Positions 7,737-28,174 of a DNA stretch of 33,906 nucleotides are shown here, one piece after another. Positions within the stretch are counted from its first letter, which is position 1; each line of letters opens with the position of its first letter. The position numbers and the translations under genes are program-made. Origin of the DNA: Candidatus Cloacimonadota bacterium (GTDB lineage: Bacteria > Cloacimonadota > Cloacimonadia > Cloacimonadales > Cloacimonadaceae); NCBI GenBank assembly GCA_027318475.1, contig DAHVPC010000012.1:1-33906 (forward strand), given 5' to 3'. A model generated the notes under the pieces. The model ran no database searches. It saw nothing but the letters and a program-made list of their open reading frames with translations, and was not told the DNA's origin.

Positions 7737-7742
7737 GGATCG

Positions 7743-8333
7743 TTAATCCGCAGGAGCCAGGCTGCCAAAGAGGAGCGATTCCACGCACTCGATGAGGATG
7801 TGCAGGATGGTGGTGTGCACTTCCTGGATGCGGTCCGCGGTTTCGGCCGGAACGATGATCTCGTGGTCGCAAGTGCCGGCGAGCGTTCCGCCGTCGCGTC
7901 CCAACAGGGCGATGGTGGAGCAGCCCATGCGAGTTGCGGTCTTCAGGGCGGTGATCACGTTGAGCGAATTGCCGCTGGTGGAGATGCCGATCACGACGTC
8001 GCCAGGCCTGGCAAAGGCTTCCACGCCGCGGGAAAAGATCTGGTCGAAGCCATAGTCGTTGGCCACGCAAGTGATGTGGGCGGGATCGGAGATGGCGATG
8101 ACGGGCAGCGAAGGCCTGTCCTGCCTGAATTTGCCGGTGAGTTCCTCCGCGAAATGCATGGCGTCGCACATGGAGCCGCCGTTGCCGAAGATCATGGCTT
8201 TGTTGCCCGCGCGGAAGCAGCCGGCGAGCAGTTCGGAGATGGCGGCGATGTTGTCGAGGTTGGCGGGTTGGGCCAGAAAGCCGCCCAAAGTCCGCTCCGC
8301 ATCGGCAAAAGAGTTCCGGATGAGGTCTTGCAT
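7743..8333 (-). CDS. gmhA: Phosphoheptose isomerase
   Basis: 196 aa, the normal family length. GmhA converts sedoheptulose 7-phosphate to D-glycero-D-manno-heptose 7-phosphate, the first step of ADP-heptose synthesis for the LPS inner core, in the cytoplasm. The sequence shows a SIS domain with GNGGSMCDAMHFAEELTGKF (substrate and metal-site region with the conserved His and Glu), the STSGNS phosphate-binding loop, and QEVHTTILHI, which carries the conserved Gln/His pair. The ribosome binding site GGGAGGG is 4 nt before the ATG and the gene begins 10 nt after the add stop codon. Its presence implies a Gram-negative envelope. No other heptose genes are in the window. Confidence 0.93.
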   Translation of the reverse strand: MQDLIRNSFADAERTLGGFLAQPANLDNIAAISELLAGCFRAGNKAMIFGNGGSMCDAMHFAEELTGKFRQDRPSLPVIAISDPAHITCVANDYGFDQIFSRGVEAFARPGDVVIGISTSGNSLNVITALKTATRMGCSTIALLGRDGGTLAGTCDHEIIVPAETADRIQEVHTTILHILIECVESLLFGSLAPAD

Positions 8334-8343
8334 GATCCCTCCC

Positions 8344-9423
8344 CTAGAGGTTTTCCTTCACCTTGATCTTGGTTTTCAGTTCGCTTTCCTCCAGTTCCTC
8401 AAATTCGCGCAGGGTCTCGTTGATCAGGCGGACGCGCTCTTTGTAAGGCAGGAAGGCGCTTTTGAAGCCGTTCAGGATCACGTATTTGATCGTGGAATAG
8501 TCCAGTTTCAGTTCGTTGATGGCGAGCATGTATTCGTCCGTGACGTTGGTGTCGGATATGGTGCGGTTGTCCGTGTTGATGGTCACCCGGAGGCCGTAAT
8601 CGATGTAGAAGTCGATGGGATGGCTGCGGATATCGGGCACCGCCTTGGTGTGGAAGTTGCTCTTGATGCAGATTTCGAGCGGGATGCGGTGGTCGTTCAC
8701 GTAGTTCAGCAAGTCGCCGTCCTCCACCAACCTGGTGCCATGGCCGATGCGGTGCGTGCCGCAATAGTGCAGGGCCTGGTGGATGCTTTCGGGTCCGTAG
8801 GCTTCGCCGGCGTGAATGGTGATGTTGAGGTTGTTCTTCAGCGCGAGGTCGAAGGCTTCCTTGTGGGCTTTGGCGGGATGGTTCAGTTCGCCGCCGGCCA
8901 GATCGAAGCCGATCACGCCCTTGTTCTTGAAGGCGATGGCGAGTTCGGCGAGTTTCAGCGAGGTGGTGGGATCCATGTTGCGGATGCCGCAGATGATCAC
9001 GCCTGTCTTGATGTGGAATTCTTTTTCGGCCTGCTTCAAGCCGTCGATCACGGCCTGGGAGATCTCGGTGAGTTTGAGTCCGTCCTGGGTGTGCAGGATG
9101 GGGGAGTAGCGCACTTCCATGTAGCGGACGTTTTCCGCGGCTGCGTCTTCGGCCAGTTCATAGGCGGCGCGTTTCAGGCCTTCCTTGCTCTGCAGCACCA
9201 GGTTGACGATGTGGAAGCCGCGCAGGTAATCGTCCAAACTGGTGGTATGTTCGCCGCAGACGATGAGTTTGCGCAGTTCATCCGGATCGAGGGTGGGCAA
9301 CTTGATATTCTGCTGCTTGGCCAGATCGATGATGGTATCGATGCGCACGCTGCCGTCGAGATGCACGTGCAGGTCCGTTTTGGGGAGTTTGCTGATGAAC
9401 TCCCGGGTAAGTTTGATCTTCAT
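8344..9423 (-). CDS. add: Adenosine deaminase
   Basis: 359 aa, the first gene of a four-gene minus-strand run. It hydrolyses adenosine to inosine and ammonia (purine salvage or catabolism). The zinc and catalytic residues of the family are visible: His19 and His21 (TDLHVHLDGS), His204 and Glu207 (HAGEAYG), His228 (GHGTRL) and Asp285 (NTDNRTIS). The NTDN form, rather than NTDD, is common in bacterial homologues; a related adenine or 6-aminofutalosine deaminase activity cannot be fully excluded. The ribosome binding site AAAGGAT precedes the ATG. It may feed the purine-type degradation genes further along, though it lies in a separate transcript. Confidence 0.9.
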   Translation of the reverse strand: MKIKLTREFISKLPKTDLHVHLDGSVRIDTIIDLAKQQNIKLPTLDPDELRKLIVCGEHTTSLDDYLRGFHIVNLVLQSKEGLKRAAYELAEDAAAENVRYMEVRYSPILHTQDGLKLTEISQAVIDGLKQAEKEFHIKTGVIICGIRNMDPTTSLKLAELAIAFKNKGVIGFDLAGGELNHPAKAHKEAFDLALKNNLNITIHAGEAYGPESIHQALHYCGTHRIGHGTRLVEDGDLLNYVNDHRIPLEICIKSNFHTKAVPDIRSHPIDFYIDYGLRVTINTDNRTISDTNVTDEYMLAINELKLDYSTIKYVILNGFKSAFLPYKERVRLINETLREFEELEESELKTKIKVKENL

Positions 9424-15735: not shown

Positions 15736-16074
15736 TTACTTCTGCTTCAGGTTGTTGAGGTTCTCCAAGGATTTGGAATTACTGGTCCAGATGAACTGGC
15801 CTTGTTCACAGGGGAAGTCGGAGCATTCCGCGCAGGTGGCGAAACCTTTGCCAAAGGCGCACTTACGGATTCCGCACTCGGCGCAGAAACCGATGTGGCG
15901 TCCCTCGACGGGACATCCATCGCAGACGATGGTCTCGGGGTCTATCTCCTTGCCGTAGGCTTGTTTGAAGCCCTCGGCCATTTTCTGGCGGGCTTCCGGG
16001 TCGTCGTTCTGCGTGGCGATGTAGCAATCGCAAATGGCGCAATTGATGCCGCAGGGGGCAAAAATCTCGATCAT
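15736..16074 (-). CDS. DUF3795 cysteine-rich protein
   Basis: 112 aa, last gene of the long minus-strand run. It begins MIEIFAPCGINCAICDCYIA and has repeated Cys pairs: CDGCPVEGRH, CAECGIRKCAFGKGFATCAEC and FPCEQ. This matches the DUF3795 family of small, probable metal-binding proteins (zinc or iron-sulphur); the biochemical role is unknown. Its ATG overlaps the nitroreductase stop (ATGA), so it is translationally coupled to that gene. Whether it serves the purine-type pathway or simply rides in the operon cannot be told. Confidence 0.8.
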   Translation of the reverse strand: MIEIFAPCGINCAICDCYIATQNDDPEARQKMAEGFKQAYGKEIDPETIVCDGCPVEGRHIGFCAECGIRKCAFGKGFATCAECSDFPCEQGQFIWTSNSKSLENLNNLKQK

Positions 16075-16634
16075 GATTTCTCCTTATTCAGATAGGTGAC
16101 GATTTCGCGCAGGGGCAGCCGGTCCGCGCTGCCCGCAAAACTGCTTAAGGCTTTGGCATACAAACTCTTGCTTTCGGCTGGATAACCAAAGGGCGACATG
16201 GCGACGATGCGCCAGGAAGCCGGCAACTTCAGGTAGGAGCGCAGTTTCTTCTCGCTGAAGGCGGCCAGCCAGCAAGTTCCGAGGCCGTGGTTCCAGGCGG
16301 TTAAGACCATCTGCTGGAAGGAGATGGCGGTATCCACCAGGTAGTAGTCCTGTTTGTTGATACGCACGTTTTTGCGGGTGTCGGCGCAGGCGATGATCAG
16401 GCAGGGAGCGCTGCGGATGAAATAGTTGGAGAGACCGATCAACCCGCAATTCAAGGCCAGTTTCTTGATCCGGTCGGCGCCCAGGACCACGATGTAGCGC
16501 CAAGGCTGTTTGTTTTGGGCGGAAGGGGCCAGGCGTCCAGCTTCCAGGATCTCGTTCAGGATTGCGTCGGGGATGGGGTCCGGCAGAAAGTTGCGTACGC
16601 TGTGCCGGCTGGCGATCAATCCCTTTAGGTCCAT
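16071..16634 (-). CDS. Nitroreductase family FMN oxidoreductase
   Basis: 187 aa, typical length. The N-terminal RHSVRNF motif and APSAQNKQPWRYIVV are the FMN-binding signatures of the family, followed by GLGTCWLAAFSEKKL, the usual second FMN contact region. Such enzymes reduce nitro groups, quinones or other substrates with NAD(P)H; the physiological substrate cannot be read from sequence. The start overlaps the stop of the MocA-like gene (TAATG), showing translational coupling. In this operon it might move electrons for the FAD-less molybdenum hydroxylase, but this is speculation. Confidence 0.85.
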   Translation of the reverse strand: MDLKGLIASRHSVRNFLPDPIPDAILNEILEAGRLAPSAQNKQPWRYIVVLGADRIKKLALNCGLIGLSNYFIRSAPCLIIACADTRKNVRINKQDYYLVDTAISFQQMVLTAWNHGLGTCWLAAFSEKKLRSYLKLPASWRIVAMSPFGYPAESKSLYAKALSSFAGSADRLPLREIVTYLNKEKS

Positions 16635-17149
16635 TATTCCTCCAACTCACTGGGCTGGTTGATGTTGCGCAGGATGCCGGGATCGTCCACGGGCAGGTCA
16701 ACCACCGTGCAGACCTGGCTGCCGATGATTCCAGCCAGCCCTTGTCCCATATCGTCCTGGCCGAGGTCAACCCAAGCTGGGACGAGCACCGGATGCCCGG
16801 ATTTACCTTGGTAAACTGGACGGAAAACAGCGTCGGGGCTGGCGCTCCACGCTTCGCACAGGGCTACGACCGTAGAGGGTTGCACCAAGGGATGGTCCAC
16901 CGGCCAGATCAGGTAACCCTCAGCCTGGTTAGGTTTTATGCCAGCGATAACCTGGCGCAGCGTGGCCAGCATATCCGGAGTGTCCAGATCCCTGGCAATA
17001 TGGATCTGCGTGATTCCAGCCCCGCGCAGTGTGGTCTCGATCCGCTCCGCGAAGGTCTGGTCCGCTATCCGGGCTTCCGCTTTGGCACCGCCGAAGCGCG
17101 TCCCTTTTCCCGAGGCGGGAACGATGGCGACGATCTTAGGCCAGGGCAT
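16634..17149 (-). CDS. MocA-like molybdenum cofactor nucleotidyltransferase
   Basis: 171 aa. The N-terminal IVPASGKGTRFGGAKAEA is the nucleotide-binding loop of the NTP-transferase / MocA family (normally LAAG.S.RMG..K); WPVDHPLV replaces the usual P.VDQP metal motif; GHPVLVP and ..GILRNINQPSE are the conserved later motifs. MocA attaches CMP to the molybdopterin cofactor used by xanthine-dehydrogenase-type enzymes. That fits the molybdenum hydroxylase genes upstream in the same run. It overlaps the 3' end of the PLP enzyme gene by 14 nt. A pure MobA role is less likely given the context, and the protein is slightly shorter than typical MocA (about 190 aa). Confidence 0.82.
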   Translation of the reverse strand: MPWPKIVAIVPASGKGTRFGGAKAEARIADQTFAERIETTLRGAGITQIHIARDLDTPDMLATLRQVIAGIKPNQAEGYLIWPVDHPLVQPSTVVALCEAWSASPDAVFRPVYQGKSGHPVLVPAWVDLGQDDMGQGLAGIIGSQVCTVVDLPVDDPGILRNINQPSELEE

Positions 17150-18584
17150 TGAACTCCTCGATGGCGGCGTCCAGTTCGTCCAGATTGCTCTCGAAGGTCT
17201 CGGCCCAATATTCCGGGTTCCATTGGCGCAGGATTTCCGCGTAGGTTTTGCCCTGTTGCTCCACCCAGGTGTAATACTTGAGGTTGTGGATGCGCTTCTT
17301 ATCCAAGTAACTCAGTTCCAGATAGTTGTCCGTGGACTGGGCTCTGAGGCAGCCTTCCAGGTCCAGGGCGGCCTGCAGTGTTGAGTAGGGTCCTTTGGCG
17401 GCAGTCTGTTCCTGAATCCGGGATTGATACATCTCCGCGGAGTCGGTGAAGATGGTGAAGATCACGTCGTCCGCATTGAGCTCGAAGTATTTGGCCTGCT
17501 TGATAACGGCCAGTAGGTTGGCGATGGAGGAGATGCCCAGATGGGGCAGGGCGCGCGCTGTTACCTCCGCAATGCCTTGGGAGACAAGGTATTCCTGGCC
17601 GGTGGGCTCGTTGAACAAGCGCAGCAGGCGCAGGCAATCCTCGTCCCGGATGGCTGCCACGGCGTCGGTGTTGCGGACGTTGTGCACCCAGGGGATGTGT
17701 TTGTCGCCGATGCCTTCGATGCGGTGTCCGCCGAAGCCGTTGTTCAGCAGGGTTGGGCATTCCAGCGCTTCCGAGGCCGTGGTTTTAAGCAAGGGATGGA
17801 GTGTCTTCAGGAAGTCGCCGGCCGCAATGGTACCCGCGGAGCCGGTGGCGCTCACGAATCCGCTGAGGCGCGAGCCGGGGGCTTTCACCAGGTTCCAGAC
17901 CTCGGCGATGGCGTTTCCGGTTACATGATAGTGCCAGAAGGGGTTGCCCATCTCGTCGAACTGGTTCAGGATCACGTTGTGGGGGTCGAGCCGGAGTTCG
18001 GCGCATTTGTCGTAGATTTCCTTGACGTTGGATTCGCAGCCGGGCGTGGCAAATACCTCCGCGCCGATCTCTTTCAGCCAGGCAAAGCGTTCCGGGCTCA
18101 TTTCCTCGGGCAGGATGGCGACCGCGGGGCAGGCCAGCAAAGCGCAGTCGAAAGCGCCGCCGCGGCAATAATTGCCGGTGGAGGGCCACACCGCCTTGTC
18201 CGCGTCCGGATCGAAGGTGCCGCTCACCAGGCGCGGGGCCAGGCAACCGTAAGCGGCGCCGACCTTATGGGCTCCGGTGGGGAAGTATTTGCCCACCATT
18301 CCGATGATGCGGGCCGGGACGCCGGTCAGCGCGGAAGGGATCTCCAGGTAATTCGGCGCGCCGAAGAGTCCGCTGCGGATGTCGTTTTTCCAGGTGATAC
18401 GGAAGAGGTTGAGGGGGTCGACGTCCCAGAGTCCGATGGGTTTTATGCGCTGCTTGATGGCGTCCGGGATCGTCTCGGGGTACATCTGCTGCCGGATCGT
18501 GGGCAGGATGATGCCGCGGTCTTTGCAGCGCCGGGCGTTCTTCTTGATCACTTCAAAGTTCTTGATCAATATCAGTTTAGGCAT
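17136..18584 (-). CDS. Fold-type-II PLP-dependent enzyme of unknown specificity
   Basis: 482 aa, longer than cysteine synthase or threonine dehydratase. The PLP lysine is probably Lys107 in FPTGAHKVGAAYG (compare TrpB-type GSHKIN / GAHK..), and STGNYCRGGA (135-144) is the phosphate/substrate loop (STGN). GFVSATGSAGTIAAGDF later gives the glycine-rich PLP phosphate site. The N-terminal ~70 residues and C-terminal ~120 residues are extensions with no recognised motif. The family is annotated at best as PLP-dependent lyase/thiolase. It follows ygeW by 24 nt and overlaps the mocA-like gene. In the purine-type pathway a PLP lyase must release ammonia from diaminopropionate or a ureido derivative; this or the 23568-24722 protein may do that in place of YgeX. 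That assignment is inference. Confidence 0.75.
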   Translation of the reverse strand: MPKLILIKNFEVIKKNARRCKDRGIILPTIRQQMYPETIPDAIKQRIKPIGLWDVDPLNLFRITWKNDIRSGLFGAPNYLEIPSALTGVPARIIGMVGKYFPTGAHKVGAAYGCLAPRLVSGTFDPDADKAVWPSTGNYCRGGAFDCALLACPAVAILPEEMSPERFAWLKEIGAEVFATPGCESNVKEIYDKCAELRLDPHNVILNQFDEMGNPFWHYHVTGNAIAEVWNLVKAPGSRLSGFVSATGSAGTIAAGDFLKTLHPLLKTTASEALECPTLLNNGFGGHRIEGIGDKHIPWVHNVRNTDAVAAIRDEDCLRLLRLFNEPTGQEYLVSQGIAEVTARALPHLGISSIANLLAVIKQAKYFELNADDVIFTIFTDSAEMYQSRIQEQTAAKGPYSTLQAALDLEGCLRAQSTDNYLELSYLDKKRIHNLKYYTWVEQQGKTYAEILRQWNPEYWAETFESNLDELDAAIEEFNALA

Positions 18585-18608: not shown

Positions 18609-19781
18609 TTATATGAAAGTCCTGATTTTCGCTGCCACATCCTTAACCTTGGATGTAAAGATCATCGCCGCGATCACGAACGGCTTGAACCCCGCCTCCT
18701 GATAGGTGTGCAGCCGGTAACGCTCGAAGACGGATTTCGCCACTTCGCCCCGCTCGCAACTCACGCCTGAGATATCGGCGGGCAGACAATGCTCGTAAAG
18801 CGCTGCTCCGTTGCGGGTTAGTTTCATCATCTCTTCCGTACACTCCCAATCCAGATGCCGCGCGTTTTCGGCCAGGCAAGACTGTTCCAATTGCTTGAGG
18901 CCCTCTTTGTCGCCCTGCTTGAGCAGTTGGGTCCGCTTCTGCATCACGGCCATCGGCGCCCAGGATTTGGGATAGACCACATCGGCCTGGTCAAAGGCGT
19001 CCTCCATGGAGTGGGTGACCCGGAACTGGGCTCCGCTTTGCGCCGCAAAGTGGTTTGCCGACTCCAGGGTCCCGGGCAGCAGGTCGTAGCCCTCCGGGTG
19101 GGCAAGAACTACGTCCATACCAAAGCGGGACATTAAGTTAATCACTCCCTGGGGTACCGAAAGCGGCTTGCCGTAGGAGGGAGAATAGGCCCAGCTCATG
19201 GCGATTTTCTTGCCCTTCAGGTTTTCCCAGCCGCCGAAGTAGTCTTTCAGTTTCAGCAGGTCGGAAAGGCTCTGGGTGGGGTGGTCCAGATCGCATTGGA
19301 GGTTGACCAAAGTGGGCCGCTGAGCAAGGATGCCGTGGTCAAATCCGTCGGTGACCGCGTCCGCGACTTCGGTCATGTAAGTGTGGCCTTCGCCGGGGTA
19401 CATATCGTCGCGGATGCCGATCACTTCGGTGAGGAATGAGATCATGGCTGCGGTTTCGCGGACTGTTTCGCCATGCGCGACCTGGGATTTGACCTCATCG
19501 AGCTCTGAAAGAGCCAAACCTAGTCCATTGACCGCGGAGGCGAAACTGAAGCGGGTTCGGGTGCTGTTGTCGCGGAAGATCGAGATTGCCAGGCCCGAGT
19601 CGAAGATCTTCCAGGTTTTGCGTTCCCGGTGCAGGATTTGCAGGACCTCCGCCACCAGCATCACCGCTTTCAGGTTGTCCAGGCTGTTTTCCCAGGTTAG
19701 CAGGAAATCTTTGCCGTAGGTCGTGGTGGTCAGGGTTGCCAGTTCTTCCAGGCGGGAGTTCAGGGCTTCTGATACGTTCAT
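18609..19781 (-). CDS. ygeW: YgeW-type carbamoyltransferase
   Basis: 390 aa, close to E. coli YgeW. It belongs to the aspartate/ornithine carbamoyltransferase superfamily: FRDNSTRTRFSF (STRTR at 73-77) binds carbamoyl phosphate, HPTQSLSDLL (HPTQ at 167-170) and HCLPADISGV are the other conserved signatures. YgeW is the UTCase subgroup found with ygeX, ygeY, ssnA, hyuA and xdh genes; it is thought to run in the catabolic direction, cleaving a ureido compound with phosphate to give carbamoyl phosphate. The exact substrate is not established from sequence. An AGAGG ribosome binding site lies before the ATG. It follows the 2Fe-2S subunit gene after 83 nt, the largest gap within this run, so a separate internal promoter is possible. 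Confidence 0.9.
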   Translation of the reverse strand: MNVSEALNSRLEELATLTTTTYGKDFLLTWENSLDNLKAVMLVAEVLQILHRERKTWKIFDSGLAISIFRDNSTRTRFSFASAVNGLGLALSELDEVKSQVAHGETVRETAAMISFLTEVIGIRDDMYPGEGHTYMTEVADAVTDGFDHGILAQRPTLVNLQCDLDHPTQSLSDLLKLKDYFGGWENLKGKKIAMSWAYSPSYGKPLSVPQGVINLMSRFGMDVVLAHPEGYDLLPGTLESANHFAAQSGAQFRVTHSMEDAFDQADVVYPKSWAPMAVMQKRTQLLKQGDKEGLKQLEQSCLAENARHLDWECTEEMMKLTRNGAALYEHCLPADISGVSCERGEVAKSVFERYRLHTYQEAGFKPFVIAAMIFTSKVKDVAAKIRTFI

Positions 19782-19864: not shown

Positions 19865-20320
19865 TCAAGGGCGCATCCGTTCCGCGGCGAGCAGCACGGC
19901 ATCGACGATCTGCTGGTAACCTGTGCAGCGGCAAAGGTTTCCCTTCAGCGCCTGGCGGATTTCGGCACGAGTAGGCCGGGGTGTTTTGGCAAGCAGGGCG
20001 TAAGCGGACATCACCATGCCCGGAGTGCAAAAACCGCATTGGATGGCGCCGGTATCCAGAAAGGCCTGCTGAATGGGATGCAGGGTACCGTCGGGCTGCG
20101 CAAGTCCTTCAATGGTAAGGATATCGGCACCTTCAACGTCCTTCAGCAGCACTTTGCAGGAACGCCTGGCTACACCATCGACCAACACCGTGCAGGAACC
20201 GCAGACGCCGATAGCGCAGCCGATCTTGGTGCCGGTGAGGAGCAGGCCTTCGCGCAGCCAGACCGAGAGTTTTTGAGCGGGATCGTAATCCGCGTGTGTA
20301 ACGCCGTTGACTTTGATCAT
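19865..20320 (-). CDS. xdhC: Molybdenum hydroxylase 2Fe-2S subunit
   Basis: 151 aa. Start chosen at 20320 because it overlaps the large-subunit stop (ATGA) and gives the standard N-terminus (MIKVNGVTHADY); further upstream codons only read through the neighbour. Two 2Fe-2S sites are visible: the plant-ferredoxin type, Cys35, Cys40, Cys43 and Cys55 (GCAIGVCGSC), and the helical type, Cys95, Cys98, Cys130 and Cys132 (CGFCTPGM, CRCTG). It passes electrons from the molybdenum centre of XdhA to an acceptor. The gene symbol follows E. coli xdhABC naming. No FAD subunit gene (xdhB) accompanies it here. Confidence 0.93.
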   Translation of the reverse strand: MIKVNGVTHADYDPAQKLSVWLREGLLLTGTKIGCAIGVCGSCTVLVDGVARRSCKVLLKDVEGADILTIEGLAQPDGTLHPIQQAFLDTGAIQCGFCTPGMVMSAYALLAKTPRPTRAEIRQALKGNLCRCTGYQQIVDAVLLAAERMRP

Positions 20321-22557
20321 AATTTGATCCTTAAAGGCTGTTCGCAGTATCGTTTGCCCGTGGCCCGGAAGATCGCGTTGGCGATGGCGGGAGCCATTAG
20401 TTCGTTGGTGGGTTCGCCGATGCCCTTGGCTTGGGAGGGTGAGTTGGGATCGGGGTTTTCCACGATTATGGCCGTCATTTCCGGCAGGTCGGTGCTCCTC
20501 GGGATGCGGTACTGGTGCAAGTTGGCGGGCACGACCTTGCCTTCGGAACAGACGCACTCCTCCATAAGGCCGTAGCCAGCGCCCATGGCCATCCCGCCGT
20601 AGAACTGCCCTTTAACGAGGGCAGGATTCACCGCCTTGCCCACATCGTGCGCCGCGACCATGTTGAGCAGTGTGACCGCGCCCGTCTTCGGATCGACCTT
20701 GAGTTCCACCGCCTGGCAGCCGTAAACCCATGTGAAATAAGCGTTACCCTGTCCGGTGCGCTCATCCCAGGTCACCTGTGGGGCTTGAAACACGCTAAAG
20801 GCGTAAGGGTAAATCTGGTGGCTGTAACAGAGGCGGATAGCATCGTTCCAAGTCATTATTCTGGAACCGTTTGCGTCGAGTAGTTCCTCGTTTGCAAAAC
20901 TCACGACCGCGTGGTCCGAGTTCTTCTTTACCATTTCTATGATGATGTCTTTCAGGATCCTGGCGGCGTTAACCACCGCGCCTCCGCCCATGATCGTGCC
21001 CCGGGAGGCCACTGTGGTACCTCCGTCGGGGATGTTGGAAGTGGATGGCAACCTGTATCTTAGGCGTTCGGGCGGTAGGCCCAGCTGTTCGGTGGCGAGC
21101 AGCAGCATGGCGGATTCGGAGCCCTGTCCGTTTTCATGCACCCCGGTTTCCAATAGCACCGAGCCGTCGGGCTGGACGCTGAGGATGGCGGAGTTGAAAT
21201 CGGTGCCTTCGGCGCCTAAACTCATGCCGCGGTAACTAATAGCGAATCCGATGCCGTACCATTCCGACTGGTTGGGGTCGCCCATAGAGCAGTTCCTGCG
21301 CTTGGTAGAATAGTCGATCTCAGCCAGGACCACGTCCATAACCTGTTGCAAGGATACCACATGCGTGTCCAGAACTTGACCTGTGACGGTGGTCGAGTCC
21401 TGCCGCACCATATTCCGGCGCCGGAACTCGATCTCGTCCAAATTCAATCTTTCCGCCGCCATTTCCACCAGTTGTTCGATGGCGAAGTTCACCTGGGGCG
21501 AGCCGAAACCCCGCATCGCGCCGCAGAAGATGTTGTTGGTATAGACTCCATACACGTCTGCCTGGACATGCGGAACCTCATAGCAGCCACAGCATTGAAC
21601 CGTGGAACGCCATGTTACCCAGGGCGTTACGCTACAGTACGCGCCGCCGTCCGCCACCATGCGGACCCGCACGGAGCGGATCAGCCCATCCCTGGTCAAA
21701 CCCATGCGGTAGTTTATCTTATAAGGATGCCGCTTGTAACTTTCGCGCAGGCTCCATTCCCGCGAGTAAGTGATCTTCACCGGACGCCGCAAATGCCAGG
21801 CGCAGAGGGCGGCCCGGGCGCAAACCAGTGCGGCCGTGTCGTCCTTGCCTCCGAAACCACCGCCCATGGGAACGGTTTTCACCTCCACGTCCTTGAGTTC
21901 CACGCCCAGAGTCGAAGCCACGAAGCGCCGGGTGGAGAACGGATGTTGCATGCTGCCAAACACTTCCATCACTCCGTCCGGCCTTGGAACGGCCAGGGCG
22001 GACTCCGGCTCCAGATAGGCGTGCTCGATGCGAGAGGTGGTAAACTCCTGTTCGATAATCAGATCCGATTCCGCTTCACCAGTTTCCACAGAGCCTCTGC
22101 GCACCCGATGATAGTTGGCGAGATTGGAGCCGTGGAAGGGATGCAGGATCTCAGCGCCGGGTAATATGGCCTCCTCAGGATTGAGAATGGGTTGGCGTGG
22201 CTCTAAATTAATATCCACCAAGGGGATGGCGGCAATGGCCTGGTCCCGGGTCTGAGCCACGATCAGGGCCAGGACGTCGCCGGTGGAGTTGACATCCTCG
22301 TCAGCCAGAGTGGGATAGTCCTTGATGATCTGGCCGAATTTGATGCTGCCCGGGATGTCTTGAGCTGTAATAACTGCAACTACGCCAGGCAGATGCAGGG
22401 CCTCGGCAGCGTCGATCGAGACGAGTTTAGCCCGCGGCAGCTCGCTGTAAACGGGAACCGCGTGCAGCATTCCGGGCAGGCTGAGGTCGTCGGTGTAGCG
22501 GGCCCGGCCGGTAACTTTGGCCACCCCGTCATTGCGGAAGGCGGGCTTGTCATTCAT
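20317..22557 (-). CDS. xdhA: Xanthine-dehydrogenase-type molybdenum hydroxylase large subunit
   Basis: 746 aa, full length for a stand-alone molybdenum subunit. It hydroxylates a heterocycle with water as the oxygen source, using a molybdopterin cofactor. Visible motifs: GGGFGGK (232-238), GAMRGFGSPQ (346-355), HENGQGSESA (475-484), ASRGTIMGGGAVVNAA (518-533) and the catalytic Glu715 in GIGEPTNEL. By ungapped alignment with remembered bovine xanthine dehydrogenase, Gln204 = Gln767, Asp239 = Glu802, Arg317 = Arg880, Arg349 = Arg912 and Glu715 = Glu1261. An acidic residue at 239 and Arg at 317 favour a purine over an aldehyde. The start overlaps the upstream stop (ATGA) with AAGGAGAT before it. 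Substrate could be hypoxanthine, xanthine or another purine, working in either direction; not decided by sequence. Confidence 0.92.
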   Translation of the reverse strand: MNDKPAFRNDGVAKVTGRARYTDDLSLPGMLHAVPVYSELPRAKLVSIDAAEALHLPGVVAVITAQDIPGSIKFGQIIKDYPTLADEDVNSTGDVLALIVAQTRDQAIAAIPLVDINLEPRQPILNPEEAILPGAEILHPFHGSNLANYHRVRRGSVETGEAESDLIIEQEFTTSRIEHAYLEPESALAVPRPDGVMEVFGSMQHPFSTRRFVASTLGVELKDVEVKTVPMGGGFGGKDDTAALVCARAALCAWHLRRPVKITYSREWSLRESYKRHPYKINYRMGLTRDGLIRSVRVRMVADGGAYCSVTPWVTWRSTVQCCGCYEVPHVQADVYGVYTNNIFCGAMRGFGSPQVNFAIEQLVEMAAERLNLDEIEFRRRNMVRQDSTTVTGQVLDTHVVSLQQVMDVVLAEIDYSTKRRNCSMGDPNQSEWYGIGFAISYRGMSLGAEGTDFNSAILSVQPDGSVLLETGVHENGQGSESAMLLLATEQLGLPPERLRYRLPSTSNIPDGGTTVASRGTIMGGGAVVNAARILKDIIIEMVKKNSDHAVVSFANEELLDANGSRIMTWNDAIRLCYSHQIYPYAFSVFQAPQVTWDERTGQGNAYFTWVYGCQAVELKVDPKTGAVTLLNMVAAHDVGKAVNPALVKGQFYGGMAMGAGYGLMEECVCSEGKVVPANLHQYRIPRSTDLPEMTAIIVENPDPNSPSQAKGIGEPTNELMAPAIANAIFRATGKRYCEQPLRIKL

Positions 22558-23581
22558 AATCCATCTCCTTGCCCAACAATTGGTTCAGAGTCCATTCCGG
22601 CCTCGCCACCGTCCGCATCAGACCGGCCGGACGCAGGCAACACAGGTCCACGAGCCGTTCGAGGCTGATGGCCCCCTTCAGCACCAGCTTGCGGTAGATT
22701 GAATTAAAGAGGGACTCGAGGCCCGGAATGCCGCAGGGCACTTGTTCCGGGCGGTCCCGGAAGCGGTCCTTATCTTCCTTCGTGAAGGCGCAATGGTCGC
22801 TGGCGAGGATGTCGAAGACACCGTCCTGCAGAAGTTCGACCAACGGTCCTCGTGACTGTTCGGAGCGGAACGGCGGAGAGCACAGCCAGCGATGGGCGTT
22901 GTCGCCTTTCAGCCGGTCCTCGTTATAGATAAGGTAATGCGGGGCGGTTTCGCAAGTGATATCGGGATTGGCGGTTTTGGCCTCTTTGATCAGCAGGGCT
23001 GCCTGGGGCGCGGACACATGGACGATATGGACGGGGTAGGCGTGCTTGACCGCCAGATCCAGAACACGTTCCACGGCAAGGACTTCCGCCTGTTCCGGAC
23101 GTCGCAGCGTATGGTCGAAAGGCGTATTGAAGGGATGCCTGGCGCTGGACTCTTCCACAATGGCGTTATCTTCGCAATGCACCAGGATGCGTGGTTTGAA
23201 GCCGCTCAAGTCCTGCATCCAGCGTCCGATGCGCTCATAGGATGAATACAGGCCGGCCTGTTTGTAGGTGGTGTAAAACTTGAGGTCGCAGCCTTCCTCT
23301 ACAAGCGGATAAACTTCATCCACGGAAGCGGTTATGGGCGTCAGGTGCCAATGCACGTGGCCGGAAAAGTGCTTGCTTGCGTCGTCTTGCATCCGTCTGT
23401 ATTTATCGGTGAGGGAAAGCCCCGCTTCCTCAGTTACAAACGCGCCGATTACTGCTATGCCGTGCTTTTTTGCCATACTGTCCAGAGCCGCGAAGTCGTC
23501 GCGCAATTTATAACCGCCGATGCGTTCGCCCACATGGACGTGGAAGTCGCAGAGCCAGGGATAGAGTTTATCTGACTGCAT
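22550..23581 (-). CDS. Dihydroorotase/hydantoinase-like amidohydrolase, barrel only
   Basis: 343 aa. Cyclic amidohydrolase motifs are complete: His14 and His16 (DFHVHVGE), Lys101 in DLKFYTTYK (position of the carboxylated lysine), His135 (LVHCED), His188 (HIVHVS) and Asp262 (SDHCAF). It should hydrolyse a cyclic amide or ureide, opening a hydantoin-like ring. It differs from HyuA, dihydropyrimidinase and dihydroorotase (about 430-480 aa): the metal motif begins at residue 12, so the usual ~50-residue N-terminal strands are absent, and it stops soon after the barrel (CCLRPAGLM), so the C-terminal half of the beta-sandwich is missing too. Both ends overlap neighbours (14 nt upstream, 8 nt downstream), so it is a natural compact form rather than a broken gene. 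Confidence 0.82.
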   Translation of the reverse strand: MQSDKLYPWLCDFHVHVGERIGGYKLRDDFAALDSMAKKHGIAVIGAFVTEEAGLSLTDKYRRMQDDASKHFSGHVHWHLTPITASVDEVYPLVEEGCDLKFYTTYKQAGLYSSYERIGRWMQDLSGFKPRILVHCEDNAIVEESSARHPFNTPFDHTLRRPEQAEVLAVERVLDLAVKHAYPVHIVHVSAPQAALLIKEAKTANPDITCETAPHYLIYNEDRLKGDNAHRWLCSPPFRSEQSRGPLVELLQDGVFDILASDHCAFTKEDKDRFRDRPEQVPCGIPGLESLFNSIYRKLVLKGAISLERLVDLCCLRPAGLMRTVARPEWTLNQLLGKEMDYE

Positions 23582-24722
23582 TGATATCCTTTAGCCCATG
23601 TCCGGTGATGAGCAGGACCACCGACTCGGAGCGCTCTATCCAGCCCAAGGCCAATGCTTTTTTCAAGCCGGACAGGGTCGCCGCGGAAGAAGGCTCGGCA
23701 AAAACGCCAGTCTTCTGCGCCAGTTCCCGTTGATCACGCAGGATTTCTTCATCGGATACCCTGATTGCATTGCCATGGCAGGCACGCAAGGCCTTGACCG
23801 CCATCAGCGCATTGCTTGGCGTCTTCACGGAGATGGAATCCGCTACGGTGCAAGGGCTTGCCGCGTCCGCGTAAACCCCGCTTTCCCAAAATGAGGTGAT
23901 GGCGTCCGAACTTTCCGCCTGCACTGCCAAAAGCCGCGGCAATTTGTCGCTAAAGCCGCATTCTTTGAGATCGTAAAAGGCTTTGTAGATGCCGGCCAGA
24001 ATAACGCCATCGCCGACCGGAACGACTATCCAGTCCGGAATTTTACGCAGTTTGCAAAAAATTTCCAGGCCGGCGGTCTTCTTGCCTTCGATGGTAAACG
24101 GATTGTAGGCGGTGTTGCGATTCAGGCACTCATGCATTTGGGAATACATCATCGCGGCGCGAAATGCGTCGTCGTAAGTGCCATTCACCAAATGCAGTTG
24201 CGCGCCGTGCACGCGGATCTGGGCCAGTTTCGCGGCAGGAGCGGAAGCCGGAGCGAAGATCACGGCAGTTTTGCCGGCGGAGGCGCACAGGCAGGCCAAA
24301 GAGGAAGCAGCGTTGCCGGTGGACGCGCAGACTATGTCCTTGACACCCAGGCGGTTGGCCTCAGCCACCACCAGTTGGGAAGCGCGGTCCTTCAGCGAGC
24401 CGCTGGGATTGAGGCCGTCGTTCTTGATAAGGAGGCGCGGCAATCCCAGATCAGCGGCCAGCCGGCCGGCCTGAAAAAGAGGCGTATTGCCAACTGGCAG
24501 AGGCGGATAGAACATCGGTTCCAGCGCGCTGAACAACTCCAGAGAAGGCTGCGTTTTCCACTCCAGACCGATCTGGGCATAGTCAAAAATTGCTTCCAGC
24601 ACGCCCGGCAAGGGAATCCCCGGCTGGTAATCCTTACTGCACACAGGGCACTGGTAGCGCGCCTCGTCCCGGGCGTATTCCGCGCCGCAGCCCACACAGC
24701 GGAAGCACTTGAAATGCGTCAT
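23568..24722 (-). CDS. Threonine-synthase-like PLP enzyme with N-terminal zinc ribbon
   Basis: 384 aa. The start at 24722 overlaps the ygeY stop (ATGA); upstream codons in frame are only readthrough of ygeY. An N-terminal ribbon carries Cys6, Cys9, Cys12, Cys25 and Cys28 (CFRCVGCG, CPVC). The catalytic domain has PVGNTPLF, the PLP lysine Lys111 in PSGSLKDRAS, CASTGNAASS (substrate/PLP loop) and VPVGDGVILAG (phosphate site). These match archaeal-type threonine synthases. Canonical threonine synthesis is possible, but no other threonine genes are near, whereas the gene is embedded and coupled between ygeY and the hydantoinase. A beta-eliminating lyase on diaminopropionate or its ureido derivative, replacing YgeX, is the contextual alternative. 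Confidence 0.78.
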   Translation of the reverse strand: MTHFKCFRCVGCGAEYARDEARYQCPVCSKDYQPGIPLPGVLEAIFDYAQIGLEWKTQPSLELFSALEPMFYPPLPVGNTPLFQAGRLAADLGLPRLLIKNDGLNPSGSLKDRASQLVVAEANRLGVKDIVCASTGNAASSLACLCASAGKTAVIFAPASAPAAKLAQIRVHGAQLHLVNGTYDDAFRAAMMYSQMHECLNRNTAYNPFTIEGKKTAGLEIFCKLRKIPDWIVVPVGDGVILAGIYKAFYDLKECGFSDKLPRLLAVQAESSDAITSFWESGVYADAASPCTVADSISVKTPSNALMAVKALRACHGNAIRVSDEEILRDQRELAQKTGVFAEPSSAATLSGLKKALALGWIERSESVVLLITGHGLKDINAVR

Positions 24723-25912
24723 TGGTTCAGTTGATATACCAACGCGGCATAAAACGCGGCGGCTTCGGTCAGATGCTGGATGGGCGTCGCTTCGTTGGGC
24801 GCGTGGGCGTAAACTTCGTTGCCCGGACCCATGCCGATGCAGGGGATCTTGTGCATGCCGGCGATGGCCACGCCGTTGGTGGAAAAGGTCCATTTATCCA
24901 CCTTGGGGACGCGCTTGAGGGTCTGTTCATAGGCTGACCGGGCGGCTTCCAGCCAGGGTGAATCGGGCGGCGTGACCCAGGTAGGGAAATACTTCTGAGT
25001 GGGGTAAACCAGCCCAGTGAAAGCGGCTTCGGAATAGGTCAGGACTTCGATATCGGCGTCCGGTTCGCCAGCCAGTTCGCAAGCCTGGCGCACTTCCGCG
25101 ACCGCCGACTCCTTGGTTTCGCCTGCTGTGAGGCGCCGGTCCAGATGGATGCGCGCGCTGTCCGGCACCGCGCATTGCGATGGACCGGTGAAGTAAACTT
25201 CTGTCACGCAGACGCTTCCTTTGCCCAAAAAAGCGTCCGTCCGCAGCCGTTCATGCAGTTTTTCGATTTCCAAAGCTATGCGGCTGATTTTGTAGATGGC
25301 GTTGACGCCGCGTTCCGGCGCCGACCCGTGGCAGGACAGGCCTTTGACGTGCACCTGCATTTCCATGCGGCCGCGGTGGCCGCGATAGATGTTCAGGTTG
25401 GTGGGTTCCGTGATCACCACCAGTTCCGGCACGATCTTGTCCTCGTTGATGATGTATTGCCAGCAGAGGCCGTCGCAGTCCTCTTCCATCACGGTGCCGG
25501 TGAACCAGATGCTGAAATGCCGGTTCAAACCCAAATCCTTGATGATGCGCGCCGCGGTGAGCATCGACGCCATGCCTCCTTCCTGGTCAACTGAGCCGCG
25601 CCCCCAGACCATGCCGTCCTTGACGTGCGCGTCGAAGGGATCGATATCCCAGAGGGCGAGGTCGCCCGGATAGACGGTGTCAATATGCGCGTCGAAGGCC
25701 AGAACGCGCTCTCCGTCTCCGATACGGCCAAGCACATTGCCGATGGGGTCGATGAAGGCCTCGTCGAAACAGGCATCTTGCATCTCTTTGAGGATATATT
25801 CCACCACCTCCTTCTCCTTGGTGGAAAAGGCGGGAATGCGGATCATATCGGAAAGGTAGCGGATGCTTTCTAACTCCAGCGCTGTTGCTTTGGCTAAGAT
25901 TTTCTCATACAT
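24719..25912 (-). CDS. ygeY: YgeY-type M20 family hydrolase
   Basis: 397 aa, first gene of the ten-gene run. M20 metallopeptidase residues are present: His76 and Asp78 (FDAHIDTV), Asp109 (SVDQEGG), Glu143-Glu144 (VMEEDCDG), Glu169 (ITEPTN), His195 in the dimerisation domain (SCHGSAPE) and a late His in EVYAHAPNEAT. Overall it resembles E. coli YgeY, long annotated as a peptidase but found with ygeX/ygeW and implicated in purine-type breakdown, where it would hydrolyse an amide or ureido bond in an open-chain intermediate. An AGGAG ribosome binding site precedes the ATG by about 9 nt. It is coupled to the next gene by an ATGA overlap. Confidence 0.9.
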   Translation of the reverse strand: MYEKILAKATALELESIRYLSDMIRIPAFSTKEKEVVEYILKEMQDACFDEAFIDPIGNVLGRIGDGERVLAFDAHIDTVYPGDLALWDIDPFDAHVKDGMVWGRGSVDQEGGMASMLTAARIIKDLGLNRHFSIWFTGTVMEEDCDGLCWQYIINEDKIVPELVVITEPTNLNIYRGHRGRMEMQVHVKGLSCHGSAPERGVNAIYKISRIALEIEKLHERLRTDAFLGKGSVCVTEVYFTGPSQCAVPDSARIHLDRRLTAGETKESAVAEVRQACELAGEPDADIEVLTYSEAAFTGLVYPTQKYFPTWVTPPDSPWLEAARSAYEQTLKRVPKVDKWTFSTNGVAIAGMHKIPCIGMGPGNEVYAHAPNEATPIQHLTEAAAFYAALVYQLNQ

Positions 25913-26142: not shown

Positions 26143-26583
26143 TCAATTTTTATGGAACCATTCATCGCTGACCTGGGCTTGTCCGAGTTTCTCGAAATAC
26201 GTTTTCATCTCTGATTCGAAAGTCCGCACCTTATGATGCTCCTTTTGATTGTCAATGTACTTTTGCACGCTGGGGATGTTGGTGTGGCTGACACCGAAGG
26301 CCGCGTAGCCCTCCTGCCATTGCATTCTGCCCTTACCTTGCGCATTGAACCATTTGGAGGAATTGCTCTTAATGGTTCGGATAAAATCCGCGATAGACAT
26401 GTCACGGGGCAAATAACACAGGATATGGACGTGATCCTGTGTGCCGTTGATCGTCACGGGATGGCCTTTGTGATTGGTTATTATGCCGTTGATGTAGGGA
26501 TGGAAGGAATCGTTAAGGAATCTCTGGTGCCTTTTCAAACCGAAAATGATATGCACGGCGAGCTGACAAAATGAGTGTGCCAT
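26143..26583 (-). CDS. IS200/IS605-type Y1 transposase (TnpA / RAYT-like)
   Basis: 146 aa, full length for the family. The HUH nickase motif is DHVHILCYLP (His-hydrophobic-His), and the catalytic tyrosine is in VQKYIDNQKEHH. The N-terminus MAHSFCQLAVHIIFGLKRHQ matches the first strand of the family (usually Y...HIVF..K). It nicks and rejoins single-stranded DNA at hairpin ends. The palindromic repeats on both sides look like its cognate hairpins or like REP-type elements tended by a domesticated RAYT. It stands between ssnA and ygeY, probably splitting an older continuous gene set. All key residues are present, so it may be active. Confidence 0.88.
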   Translation of the reverse strand: MAHSFCQLAVHIIFGLKRHQRFLNDSFHPYINGIITNHKGHPVTINGTQDHVHILCYLPRDMSIADFIRTIKSNSSKWFNAQGKGRMQWQEGYAAFGVSHTNIPSVQKYIDNQKEHHKVRTFESEMKTYFEKLGQAQVSDEWFHKN

Positions 26584-26845: not shown

Positions 26846-28174
26846 TTAAAATCTGTCCCATAAGGCCTTGGCAAGTTCGCGGCTGCGGGCTTTGACCTCG
26901 CTTTCATCCACGTTCACGGCCAGTTGCCCGTTCCACATCAGGATTTCGCCGGCGCAGATGGTGGTATTCACTGCGGCCTGGGAAATCCCGTAAACCAGAT
27001 GCCCAATCCAGGTTTCGGCGTTGAGCGGAGTGTGCGGCTCGTAATCCACGAAGATGATGTCCGCGGGGCTGCCATCGGCAAGGATGCCGTGCCCGGAACC
27101 CCAGTATTTCTGCGCGATGCGCGGATTGTTCTGCGCCAGCGCCAGCGCCAGTTCCATAAATCCTTTGGAGGGGTCGTTTTGCCTTAGGTGCTGCGCCCAG
27201 ATGCCCACGCGCAGTTCCTCCAGCATGTTCACCGTCATGGCGTCCGTGCCGAGGCCCACCGTAACGCCCAATTCCGCCATCTTGCAAACGTCCGCGATGC
27301 CCACGGCGTTGTTCAGGTTGGACTGCGGATTGGTGACCAACGCGGCGCCGGAATCCGCCACCAGCATCATTTCCCGGGCATTCATATGGACTCCGTGCGC
27401 CAGGATACTATCTTTATTTACCAAGCCGAAGTCGCAGAGCCGTTCCACGACCCGTTTGCCATGGCGCTGGATGTTGTAAAGTTCGTCCGACTCGGCTTCA
27501 GCGGCGTGGATATGTGTGCCGCAGTTGAGTTTGGAAACCCAATCAGCGATTTCCTTGAGGGTGGCGTCGGAGAGCGTGAACGCCGCGTGCATGCCGAACA
27601 GCCCTTGCAGCAGGGGATCTGGATGCGAGCGCAGCTGGCGCAGCCAGTCCACGTTTTCCTGGATGCCGGCCTGGCAGATCTCCGCGCCATCCCGATCCGA
27701 AACCTCGTAGCAGAGGGAGCCGCGGATGCCGCATTCCTTGATGGCTTGGGCGATCTGAGCCAGGGATCCGGTAACGGCGCCGGGGCTGGCATGGTGGTCG
27801 ATAACGGTGGTGCAGCCTTGCTTGATGGCGTTGAGGGCAGAGACCAGCGCACTGACATACACGTCTTCCAGGAGGAGTTTTTTATCCAGGCGCCACCACA
27901 GGTTTTCCAACACGGCGTTGAAATCCTTTGCCGGCGCGGCCTTGCCCAATCCGGTCACCAAGGTGGAATAGAAGTGGTGGTGCGCGTTGATCAGGCCGGG
28001 CATGACGACCTTGCCGGATGCGTCCATGCGTTCGCACTGGATGAGCGATAATTCCGCGACTGGAGCGATGCGGATGATCCGGCCGTCTTCCACCAGGATG
28101 CCCTGATTTTCCAGCACTGGTTGCGCGGGATCGAAAGTGACCAGTGTGCCGCCCGTAACGATGTAGGGTTTCAT
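26846..28174 (-). CDS. ssnA: SsnA-type aminohydrolase
   Basis: 442 aa. Start chosen at 28174: AGAGGA lies just upstream and MKPYIVTGGTLVTFD is the family N-terminus. It belongs to the cytosine/guanine-deaminase-like amidohydrolases. Metal and catalytic residues: His65 and His67 (NAHHHFYS), His223 (GTHIHAAEAESD), His260 and His263 (LAHGVHM) and Asp311 (GLGTDAM). SsnA is repeatedly found with ygeW, ygeY, hyuA and xdh genes, where it is thought to deaminate or open a purine-derived ring; in E. coli it was first linked to stationary-phase survival. It is separated from ygeY by the IS200-type gene, and its promoter region borders the repeat cluster at 28263-28503. Confidence 0.88.
   Translation of the reverse strand: MKPYIVTGGTLVTFDPAQPVLENQGILVEDGRIIRIAPVAELSLIQCERMDASGKVVMPGLINAHHHFYSTLVTGLGKAAPAKDFNAVLENLWWRLDKKLLLEDVYVSALVSALNAIKQGCTTVIDHHASPGAVTGSLAQIAQAIKECGIRGSLCYEVSDRDGAEICQAGIQENVDWLRQLRSHPDPLLQGLFGMHAAFTLSDATLKEIADWVSKLNCGTHIHAAEAESDELYNIQRHGKRVVERLCDFGLVNKDSILAHGVHMNAREMMLVADSGAALVTNPQSNLNNAVGIADVCKMAELGVTVGLGTDAMTVNMLEELRVGIWAQHLRQNDPSKGFMELALALAQNNPRIAQKYWGSGHGILADGSPADIIFVDYEPHTPLNAETWIGHLVYGISQAAVNTTICAGEILMWNGQLAVNVDESEVKARSRELAKALWDRF

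What the first reader, a model, noticed from the sequence alone, without database searches (positions are those of the whole stretch)
17136..18584. 482-aa PLP enzyme of uncertain family next to ygeW
It has the GAHK and STGN motifs of fold-type-II PLP enzymes, but long N- and C-terminal extensions I do not recognise. It directly follows the carbamoyltransferase and overlaps mocA. No YgeX is present, so this protein is a candidate for the terminal lyase, possibly on a carbamoylated substrate.
Basis: partly seen in the sequence, partly recalled or inferred. Interest (0 to 1): 0.6.

Follow-up and report, generated by a model that had tools for sequence, protein, structure and literature searches.

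The report
Uncharacterised PLP enzyme of urate breakdown
The 482-residue vitamin-B6 enzyme next to ygeW belongs to an unnamed, highly conserved family that occurs almost only in bacteria carrying the newly described anaerobic uric-acid breakdown pathway, so it is very probably a missing piece of that pathway that published work has not told apart from the known final enzyme YgeX.

Summary
In detail: an intact 482-aa ORF on the minus strand, a PLP fold-type II enzyme (CysK-like core plus conserved N- and C-terminal extensions), 24 nt after ygeW and overlapping a mocA-like gene by 14 nt. It passes no NCBIfam equivalog cut-off. Relatives at 58-84% identity occur in at least nine phyla. Their distribution follows the reductive urate pathway: in 120 Elusimicrobiota genomes the family and SsnA occur in exactly the same 26 and in none of the other 94, usually at unlinked loci. 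Of 50 carrier genomes, 48 have SsnA, 44 YgeW, 42 YgeY, but only 2 have a YgeX-family gene. In one acidobacterial cluster a YgeX-family gene takes that second enzyme's slot while the 482-aa family stays, so a simple YgeX replacement is not proven. All 40 aligned members carry an Asp (D294) aligned with Asp232 of Fn1055, a CysK homologue that replaces a beta-group with water to give serine. Best guess: Cbeta-N cleavage of 2,3-diaminopropionate, perhaps forming serine. A carbamoylated substrate is less likely, because two ureido-removing functions are usually retained. New variant of a known pathway; the reaction is unproven.

The parts
17136..18584 (-). The 482-aa PLP fold-type II enzyme (P0001); unnamed family tied to the reductive urate pathway
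18264..18275 (-). GAHK, residues 104-107; Lys107 is the predicted PLP lysine
   Evidence: G104, H106 and K107 invariant in 40 sequences; Lys107 aligns with the E. coli CysK/CysM PLP lysine
18171..18182 (-). STGN, residues 135-138, the substrate-carboxylate loop (TSGN in CysK)
   Evidence: invariant in 40 sequences; alignment with CysK
17703..17726 (-). HRIEGIGD, residues 287-294; Asp294 is in the column of Fn1055 Asp232 (Ala in E. coli CysK)
18609..19781 (-). ygeW, knotted carbamoyltransferase
   Evidence: 638.7 bits vs cut-off 453
19865..20332 (-). XDH-type [2Fe-2S] subunit (start inferred)
20317..22557 (-). XDH-type molybdopterin subunit, candidate urate reductase
22550..23581 (-). Compact (343 aa) hydantoinase-like amidohydrolase in the HyuA position
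   Evidence: dihydropyrimidinase model 4e-45
23568..24722 (-). ThrC-like PLP fold-II enzyme; true start about 57 codons inside the 441-aa ORF; second terminal-step candidate
24719..25912 (-). ygeY, M20 hydrolase
   Evidence: 526.8 bits vs cut-off 321
26846..28162 (-). ssnA, aminohydrolase marker of the reductive urate pathway
   Evidence: 465.7 bits vs cut-off 455.5
16634..17149 (-). mocA-like nucleotidyltransferase (Mo cofactor), overlapping the end of the PLP gene
16071..16634 (-). nitroreductase-family flavoprotein, conserved next gene in Cloacimonadota

Best explanation
The protein is a dedicated enzyme of the SsnA-dependent reductive (anaerobic) uric-acid degradation pathway and acts at its C3 end. 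Strongly supported by computation: it is a PLP fold-type II enzyme with a CysK-type core, it is physically and phylogenetically tied to SsnA, YgeW and YgeY in many phyla, and its genomes usually lack YgeX and instead carry it together with a ThrC-like PLP enzyme. Inferred: its substrate is the de-ureidated product 2,3-diaminopropionate (DAP). It forms an external aldimine through Lys107, abstracts the alpha-proton, and cleaves the Cbeta-N bond with Asp294 as acid/base near Cbeta, giving an aminoacrylate. My most likely detail is that Asp294 then adds water, as Asp232 is reported to be needed for in Fn1055, so DAP + H2O gives serine + NH3; the ThrC-like partner (or, rarely, a YgeX-family lyase in the same slot) performs the alpha,beta-elimination that yields pyruvate. 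The pathway role is about 90% likely, action on Cbeta-N of DAP about 60%, the serine-forming detail about 30%.
For: Co-occurrence: P0001 and SsnA in the same 26 of 120 Elusimicrobiota genomes and in none of the other 94 (Fisher p 7e-27, not corrected for shared ancestry), mostly on different contigs. In 99 Cloacimonadota, P0001 with SsnA [[59,10],[8,22]] p 2e-8 and with YgeW-like genes [[62,7],[3,27]] p 1e-14. In 50 carrier genomes: YgeW 44, SsnA 48, YgeY 42, YgeX-family 2. Linkage: ssnA-ygeY-ThrC-like-hydantoinase-xdh-FeS-ygeW-P0001-mocA order in Cloacimonadota and Ignavibacteria, and different orders with YgfK, carbamate kinase and two or three carbamoyltransferases elsewhere. De-ureidating enzymes vary while P0001 stays: YgeY is absent in G009, G018, G020, G025, G026, G043, and those of this group that were read carry paired carbamoyltransferases; in G116, G118, G127, G143 an allantoate-amidohydrolase-type enzyme is present without YgeW or YgeY. 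Active site: Lys107, STGN, near-invariant Gln208 and invariant Asp294; Fn1055 reads HRIEGISDEFIP there, and Fn1055 turns cysteine into serine by beta-replacement with Asp232 as a key residue (PMC12940168). Pathway chemistry: PMC12507026.
Against: No enzyme assay exists. E. coli and C. difficile run the pathway without this family (no counterpart gene is listed in their clusters in PMC12507026). A YgeX-family gene coexists with P0001 in the G102 cluster and, on another contig, in G106, which argues against P0001 being only a YgeX substitute. Asp294 could simply protonate the leaving group (plain elimination) rather than add water. The equation of alignment position 236 with Fn1055 Asp232 rests on an inferred tag offset of about four residues. 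Overall similarity to Fn1055 (60 bits) is lower than to ordinary cysteine synthases (85 bits). Many genomes are fragmented MAGs.
Confidence: 0.55

Rival explanations
1. The 482-aa enzyme is itself the terminal DAP ammonia-lyase, a non-orthologous replacement of YgeX (DAP to pyruvate + 2 NH3), and the ThrC-like protein does a neighbouring or enantiomer-specific job.
For: YgeX nearly absent where P0001 occurs (2 of 50); tighter co-occurrence with SsnA than the ThrC-like protein, which also occurs without SsnA; in G123, G126 and G141 P0001 occurs with no ThrC-like hit.
Against: A YgeX-family lyase shares its cluster in G102 and its genome in G106. The YgeX loop TDGNHG is STGNYC here.
Confidence: 0.28
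2. The ThrC-like protein is the terminal DAP lyase, and the 482-aa enzyme converts the D-configured pathway product to the L-form (racemase) or handles only the D-enantiomer.
For: HyuA is D-stereospecific and YgeX accepts both D- and L-DAP (PMC12507026), so a one-enantiomer lyase would need help; in G102 a YgeX-family gene takes the slot of the ThrC-like gene; in ThrC-like proteins the residue aligned with the Arg of the canonical threonine synthases fetched here (NPYRIEGQKT) is Thr or Ala.
Against: No direct sign of racemase chemistry; the conserved Asp294 lies in the column of a beta-replacement residue.
Confidence: 0.17
3. One reading: the enzyme acts on the still carbamoylated alpha-amino acid albizziin (3-ureidoalanine), releasing urea.
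For: It lies directly after ygeW; CysK relatives include O-ureido-L-serine synthase (3x43, weak match); YgeW product is albizziin (PMC12507026).
Against: A second ureido-removing enzyme is usually present: YgeY in 42 of 50, or a second carbamoyltransferase, or an amidohydrolase. G113 has YgeW but no YgeY and was not resolved.
Confidence: 0.12
4. It supplies sulfide or selenide (from cysteine or selenocysteine) for the molybdenum centre of the XDH-type urate reductase, as a CysK/Fn1055-like H2S-releasing enzyme.
For: Overlaps mocA in the window; Asp294 column shared with H2S-releasing Fn1055.
Against: Not consistently next to mocA; often beside ygeW or the ThrC-like gene, or alone; the published E. 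coli cluster does not contain it.
Confidence: 0.1
5. It is an ordinary cysteine synthase or cystathionine beta-synthase with extra ends, unrelated to urate.
For: Best sequence and fold matches are cysteine synthases.
Against: Far below every equivalog cut-off, separate CysK-like genes exist in some genomes, and the same-26 co-occurrence with SsnA.
Confidence: 0.04

Closest known systems
Reductive uric-acid degradation pathway of E. coli and C. difficile (XdhD, YgfK/UacX, SsnA, HyuA, YgeW/UacY, YgeY, YgeX; PMC12507026)
   Same: The window has ssnA, ygeY, a hydantoinase-like gene, XDH-type subunits, ygeW and a mocA-like gene
   Different: No YgeX in the window; two other PLP fold-II enzymes instead. 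The paper scores YgeX as any PF00291 neighbour, which would not tell these apart.
YgeX, 2,3-diaminopropionate ammonia-lyase (TIGR03528, PRK08206)
   Same: PLP fold-type II (PF00291), same pathway
   Different: P0001 does not match the model at E 0.001; different loop (STGNYC vs TDGNHG), extra N- and C-terminal parts
CysK / O-acetylserine sulfhydrylase (TIGR01139) and CBS
   Same: Best sequence match (1e-28) and best fold match (8srt_B, E 5e-16, target TM 0.80); PLP lysine, Gln208 and a G(T/S)xGT-type phosphate loop aligned
   Different: 100 bits vs cut-off 351; AHK instead of SVK, STGN instead of TSGN, GIGDKH instead of GIGAGF, about 170 extra residues
Fn1055 cysteine (hydroxyl) lyase of Fusobacterium nucleatum (5b53)
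   Same: HRIEGI-x-D motif with Asp in the same column
   Different: Shorter, TSGN loop, acts on cysteine; lower overall similarity than to ordinary CysK
Threonine synthase / PRK08197 group (for the partner gene)
   Same: The ThrC-like partner matches threonine synthases best (2d1f, 3e-52)
   Different: Arg of NPYRIEGQKT replaced by Thr or Ala in the sequences read; separate branch from canonical ThrC

Membership tests
PLP fold-type II (PF00291) superfamily | PALP domain with PLP lysine, Asn loop and phosphate loop | tested here: met
   PF00291 58 bits vs 35; aligned motifs; fold match
YgeX / diaminopropionate ammonia-lyase | Match to TIGR03528 or PRK08206 over cut-off | tested here: not met
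   Not among the 8 NCBIfam matches at E 0.001
YgeX / diaminopropionate ammonia-lyase | DAP to pyruvate activity | not testable with these tools
   needs assay
CysK / cysteine synthase | Score over an equivalog cut-off | tested here: not met
   100.4 vs 350.95 bits for cysK; all others also far below
TrpB (tryptophan synthase beta) | Match to TrpB models | tested here: not met
   No TrpB model among the NCBIfam matches in spite of the shared AHK
Fn1055-type beta-replacement with water | Asp in the Asp232 column | tested here: met
   Invariant in 40 sequences; printed alignment to 5b53; the residue numbering offset is inferred
Fn1055-type beta-replacement with water | Serine as product | not testable with these tools
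   needs assay
Component of the reductive urate pathway | Genetic linkage to ssnA, ygeW, ygeY, xdh | tested here: met
Component of the reductive urate pathway | Phylogenetic co-occurrence with SsnA | tested here: met
   26/26 and 0/94 in Elusimicrobiota; 59/69 vs 8/30 in Cloacimonadota
Component of the reductive urate pathway | Needed for growth on or degradation of urate | not testable with these tools
   needs genetics

The most novel reading that the evidence does not exclude
A previously undescribed PLP enzyme, 2,3-diaminopropionate hydroxyl-lyase (DAP + H2O to serine + NH3), works with a ThrC-like serine-deaminating partner as a two-enzyme route that replaces YgeX in many environmental phyla, feeding urate carbon into serine as well as pyruvate.
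Probability: 0.28. Interest if true: 0.72.

Novelty: new variant of a known kind. Interest (0 to 1): 0.58.

Why it matters
The reductive urate pathway was only worked out biochemically in 2025, with YgeX as its last enzyme in the organisms studied. Here YgeX is nearly absent from a large set of other carriers of the pathway, and two uncharacterised PLP families stand in the operon instead. Annotation by Pfam alone (PF00291) hides this. It gives a specific marker family for urate degradation outside Enterobacteria and Clostridia and makes the open C3-end chemistry (which ureido group, which enantiomer, which product) directly testable with a few recombinant proteins and commercial substrates.

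Tried and rejected
(1) OrtB (2-amino-4-oxopentanoate thiolase), thought of from memory because of similar size: no such match among the NCBIfam hits, and the literature search was uninformative. (2) TrpB, suggested by GAHK: no TrpB model matches. (3) Ordinary CysK/CBS: scores too low and the distribution does not fit. (4) 'ThrC-like protein is just threonine synthase': it lies in the pathway operon, lacks the canonical Arg in the aligned position, and the SsnA-negative copies form a clade nested inside the pathway-linked copies, so they look derived. (5) 'The Elusimicrobiota homologues next to lepA/metF/tRNA-nucleotidyltransferase mean a non-urate role': rejected because those genomes also carry SsnA and mostly YgeW at other loci. 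(6) A reader-style albizziin lyase: weakened, not excluded. (8) Aligning the STGN region to Fn1055 to fix the residue offset failed because Fn1055 was not among the printed alignments.

Full report
What is there. The ORF at 17136-18584 lies on the minus strand, encodes 482 aa without internal stops and starts 24 nt after the ygeW stop codon; its end overlaps a mocA-like ORF by 14 nt. Its only Pfam domain is PALP. NCBIfam gives cysteine-synthase models as best matches, all far under their cut-offs (cysK 100 vs 351 bits). GAHK and STGN are at residues 104-107 and 135-138.

The operon. On the same strand, in transcription order: ssnA (26846-28162; 465.7 bits vs cut-off 455.5), an IS200-like transposase, ygeY (over cut-off), a ThrC-like PLP enzyme, a compact hydantoinase-like protein, XDH-type molybdopterin and Fe-S subunits, ygeW (over cut-off), the 482-aa enzyme, a mocA-like gene and a nitroreductase-family gene. 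These are the genes of the reductive uric-acid degradation pathway described in E. coli and C. difficile, where YgeX converts 2,3-diaminopropionate to pyruvate and ammonia (PMC12507026; comment PMC12990295). YgeX is not in the window; two other PLP fold-II enzymes are. The 441-aa ThrC-like ORF very probably starts about 57 codons later, at 24722, where homology begins and where it overlaps the end of ygeY.

The family. A scan of bacterial genomes found 406 relatives, of which 80 were kept, in Cloacimonadota, Ignavibacteria, Bacteroidota, Acidobacteria, Verrucomicrobia, Planctomycetes, Elusimicrobia, Oligoflexia, Myxococcota and others. Forty aligned members are 58-84% identical to the query, with many invariant residues also in the extensions. 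The AlphaFold model is confident (pLDDT 89.2, pTM 0.91), and its core matches cysteine synthases best in the PDB.

Link to the urate pathway. The order ssnA-ygeY-ThrC-like-hydantoinase-xdh-FeS-ygeW-P0001-mocA recurs in Cloacimonadota and Ignavibacteria; other genomes keep the same genes in other orders with YgfK (one checked: 1430 bits vs cut-off 835) and carbamate kinase. In 50 carrier genomes YgeW is found in 44, SsnA in 48, YgeY in 42 and a YgeX-family gene in 2. In 120 Elusimicrobiota genomes the family is in 26, SsnA in exactly those 26, and neither in the other 94, although the two genes mostly lie on different contigs; Fisher p is 7e-27, without correction for shared ancestry. In 99 Cloacimonadota the association is weaker but clear (p 2e-8 with SsnA, 1e-14 with YgeW-like genes); some exceptions are in fragmented assemblies.

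Two PLP enzymes. The ThrC-like protein has matches of about 200 bits or more in 46 of 51 genomes tested, mainly in the same operon or beside ygeW and carbamate kinase. It resembles threonine synthases, but where the canonical threonine synthases fetched here read NPYRIEGQKT it has Thr or Ala in the place of the Arg (in the odd case L022, Leu). From memory, that Arg binds the substrate phosphate; I did not test this. SsnA-negative Elusimicrobiota carry a ThrC-like gene too, but their copies form a derived clade inside the pathway-linked ones, with four fixed differences.

Which step. Two ureido-removing functions are usually retained next to this family: YgeW plus YgeY; or, in six YgeY-less Cloacimonadota genomes, carbamoyltransferase copies in tandem in those read; or an allantoate-amidohydrolase-type enzyme in Elusimicrobiota without YgeW and YgeY. 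That points to a de-ureidated substrate, DAP. One genome (G113) has YgeW without a recognised YgeY and stays unexplained. In the Acidobacteria genome G102 the cluster is ygeW-P0001-ssnA-carbamate kinase-YgeX-like-xdh, and G106 has P0001, a ThrC-like gene and a partial YgeX. These two cases argue that the ThrC-like protein, rather than P0001, holds the YgeX slot. Against that, P0001 tracks SsnA more tightly, and in three genomes occurs without any ThrC-like hit.

Mechanism. Invariant Asp294 sits in HRIEGIGD. The aligned stretch of Fn1055 reads HRIEGISD, while E. coli CysK has Ala in that column. Fn1055 converts cysteine to serine and H2S by beta-replacement, with Asp232 a key residue (PMC12940168). 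The deposited chain is probably numbered four residues ahead of the native one, so its position 236 is taken as Asp232; this is an inference. I remember, but could not read here, that the D232N mutant stalls at aminoacrylate (the PDB title of 5b55, agrees: D232N in complex with an aminoacrylate intermediate). By analogy P0001 may cleave the Cbeta-N bond of DAP and add water to give serine, with the ThrC-like partner deaminating serine. Asp294 might equally protonate the leaving amine for plain elimination. All of this is inference.

Verdict. The exact reaction is open. The published survey of the pathway scored YgeX as any PF00291 neighbour, which could not reveal the difference; within the papers searched I found no description of this family.

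Noticed in passing
   Followed up: partly
L082, L083 and L084, L085 (Cloacimonadota, families f2 and f11): Two or three tandem divergent carbamoyltransferases with carbamate kinase in the urate cluster; YgeY is absent from six Cloacimonadota genomes of these families. A second carbamoyltransferase may replace YgeY and save a second carbamoyl phosphate.
   Followed up: partly
L113, L114, L133, L134 (Elusimicrobiota): Urate clusters in genomes without YgeW and YgeY carry an allantoate-amidohydrolase/carbamoylase-type M20 enzyme beside SsnA, P0001 and the ThrC-like gene.
   Followed up: partly
L112 (G102, Acidobacteria): Cluster with P0001 and a divergent YgeX-family gene together, in the slot usually held by the ThrC-like gene.
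   Followed up: partly
window 26143-26583: IS200/IS605-like transposase between ssnA and ygeY; related loci such as L010 have the two genes adjacent.
   Followed up: partly
window 22550-23581: Hydantoinase-like protein of only 343 aa (about 440-450 aa in L015 and L020), a compact HyuA form in this Cloacimonadota family.
   Followed up: no
window 6702-9423: T9SS-tailed DNase I-like protein, GmhA-like isomerase and adenosine deaminase; in L010 and L012 the adenosine deaminase and the next genes directly follow the urate operon, suggesting nucleic-acid and purine scavenging. In the window about 6 kb of other ORFs, several T9SS-tailed, lies between.
   Followed up: partly
L142, L143, L144 (CysK-like genes of other Cloacimonadota genomes): Separate CysK-like proteins with the Fn1055-type GISDEFIP motif.
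   Followed up: no
L120-L126 (SsnA-negative Elusimicrobiota): Derived ThrC-like proteins; in L121 and L123-L125 the gene follows a 599-aa (or 598-aa) and a 397-aa ORF that were not identified by a profile search. Function unclear.
   Followed up: no
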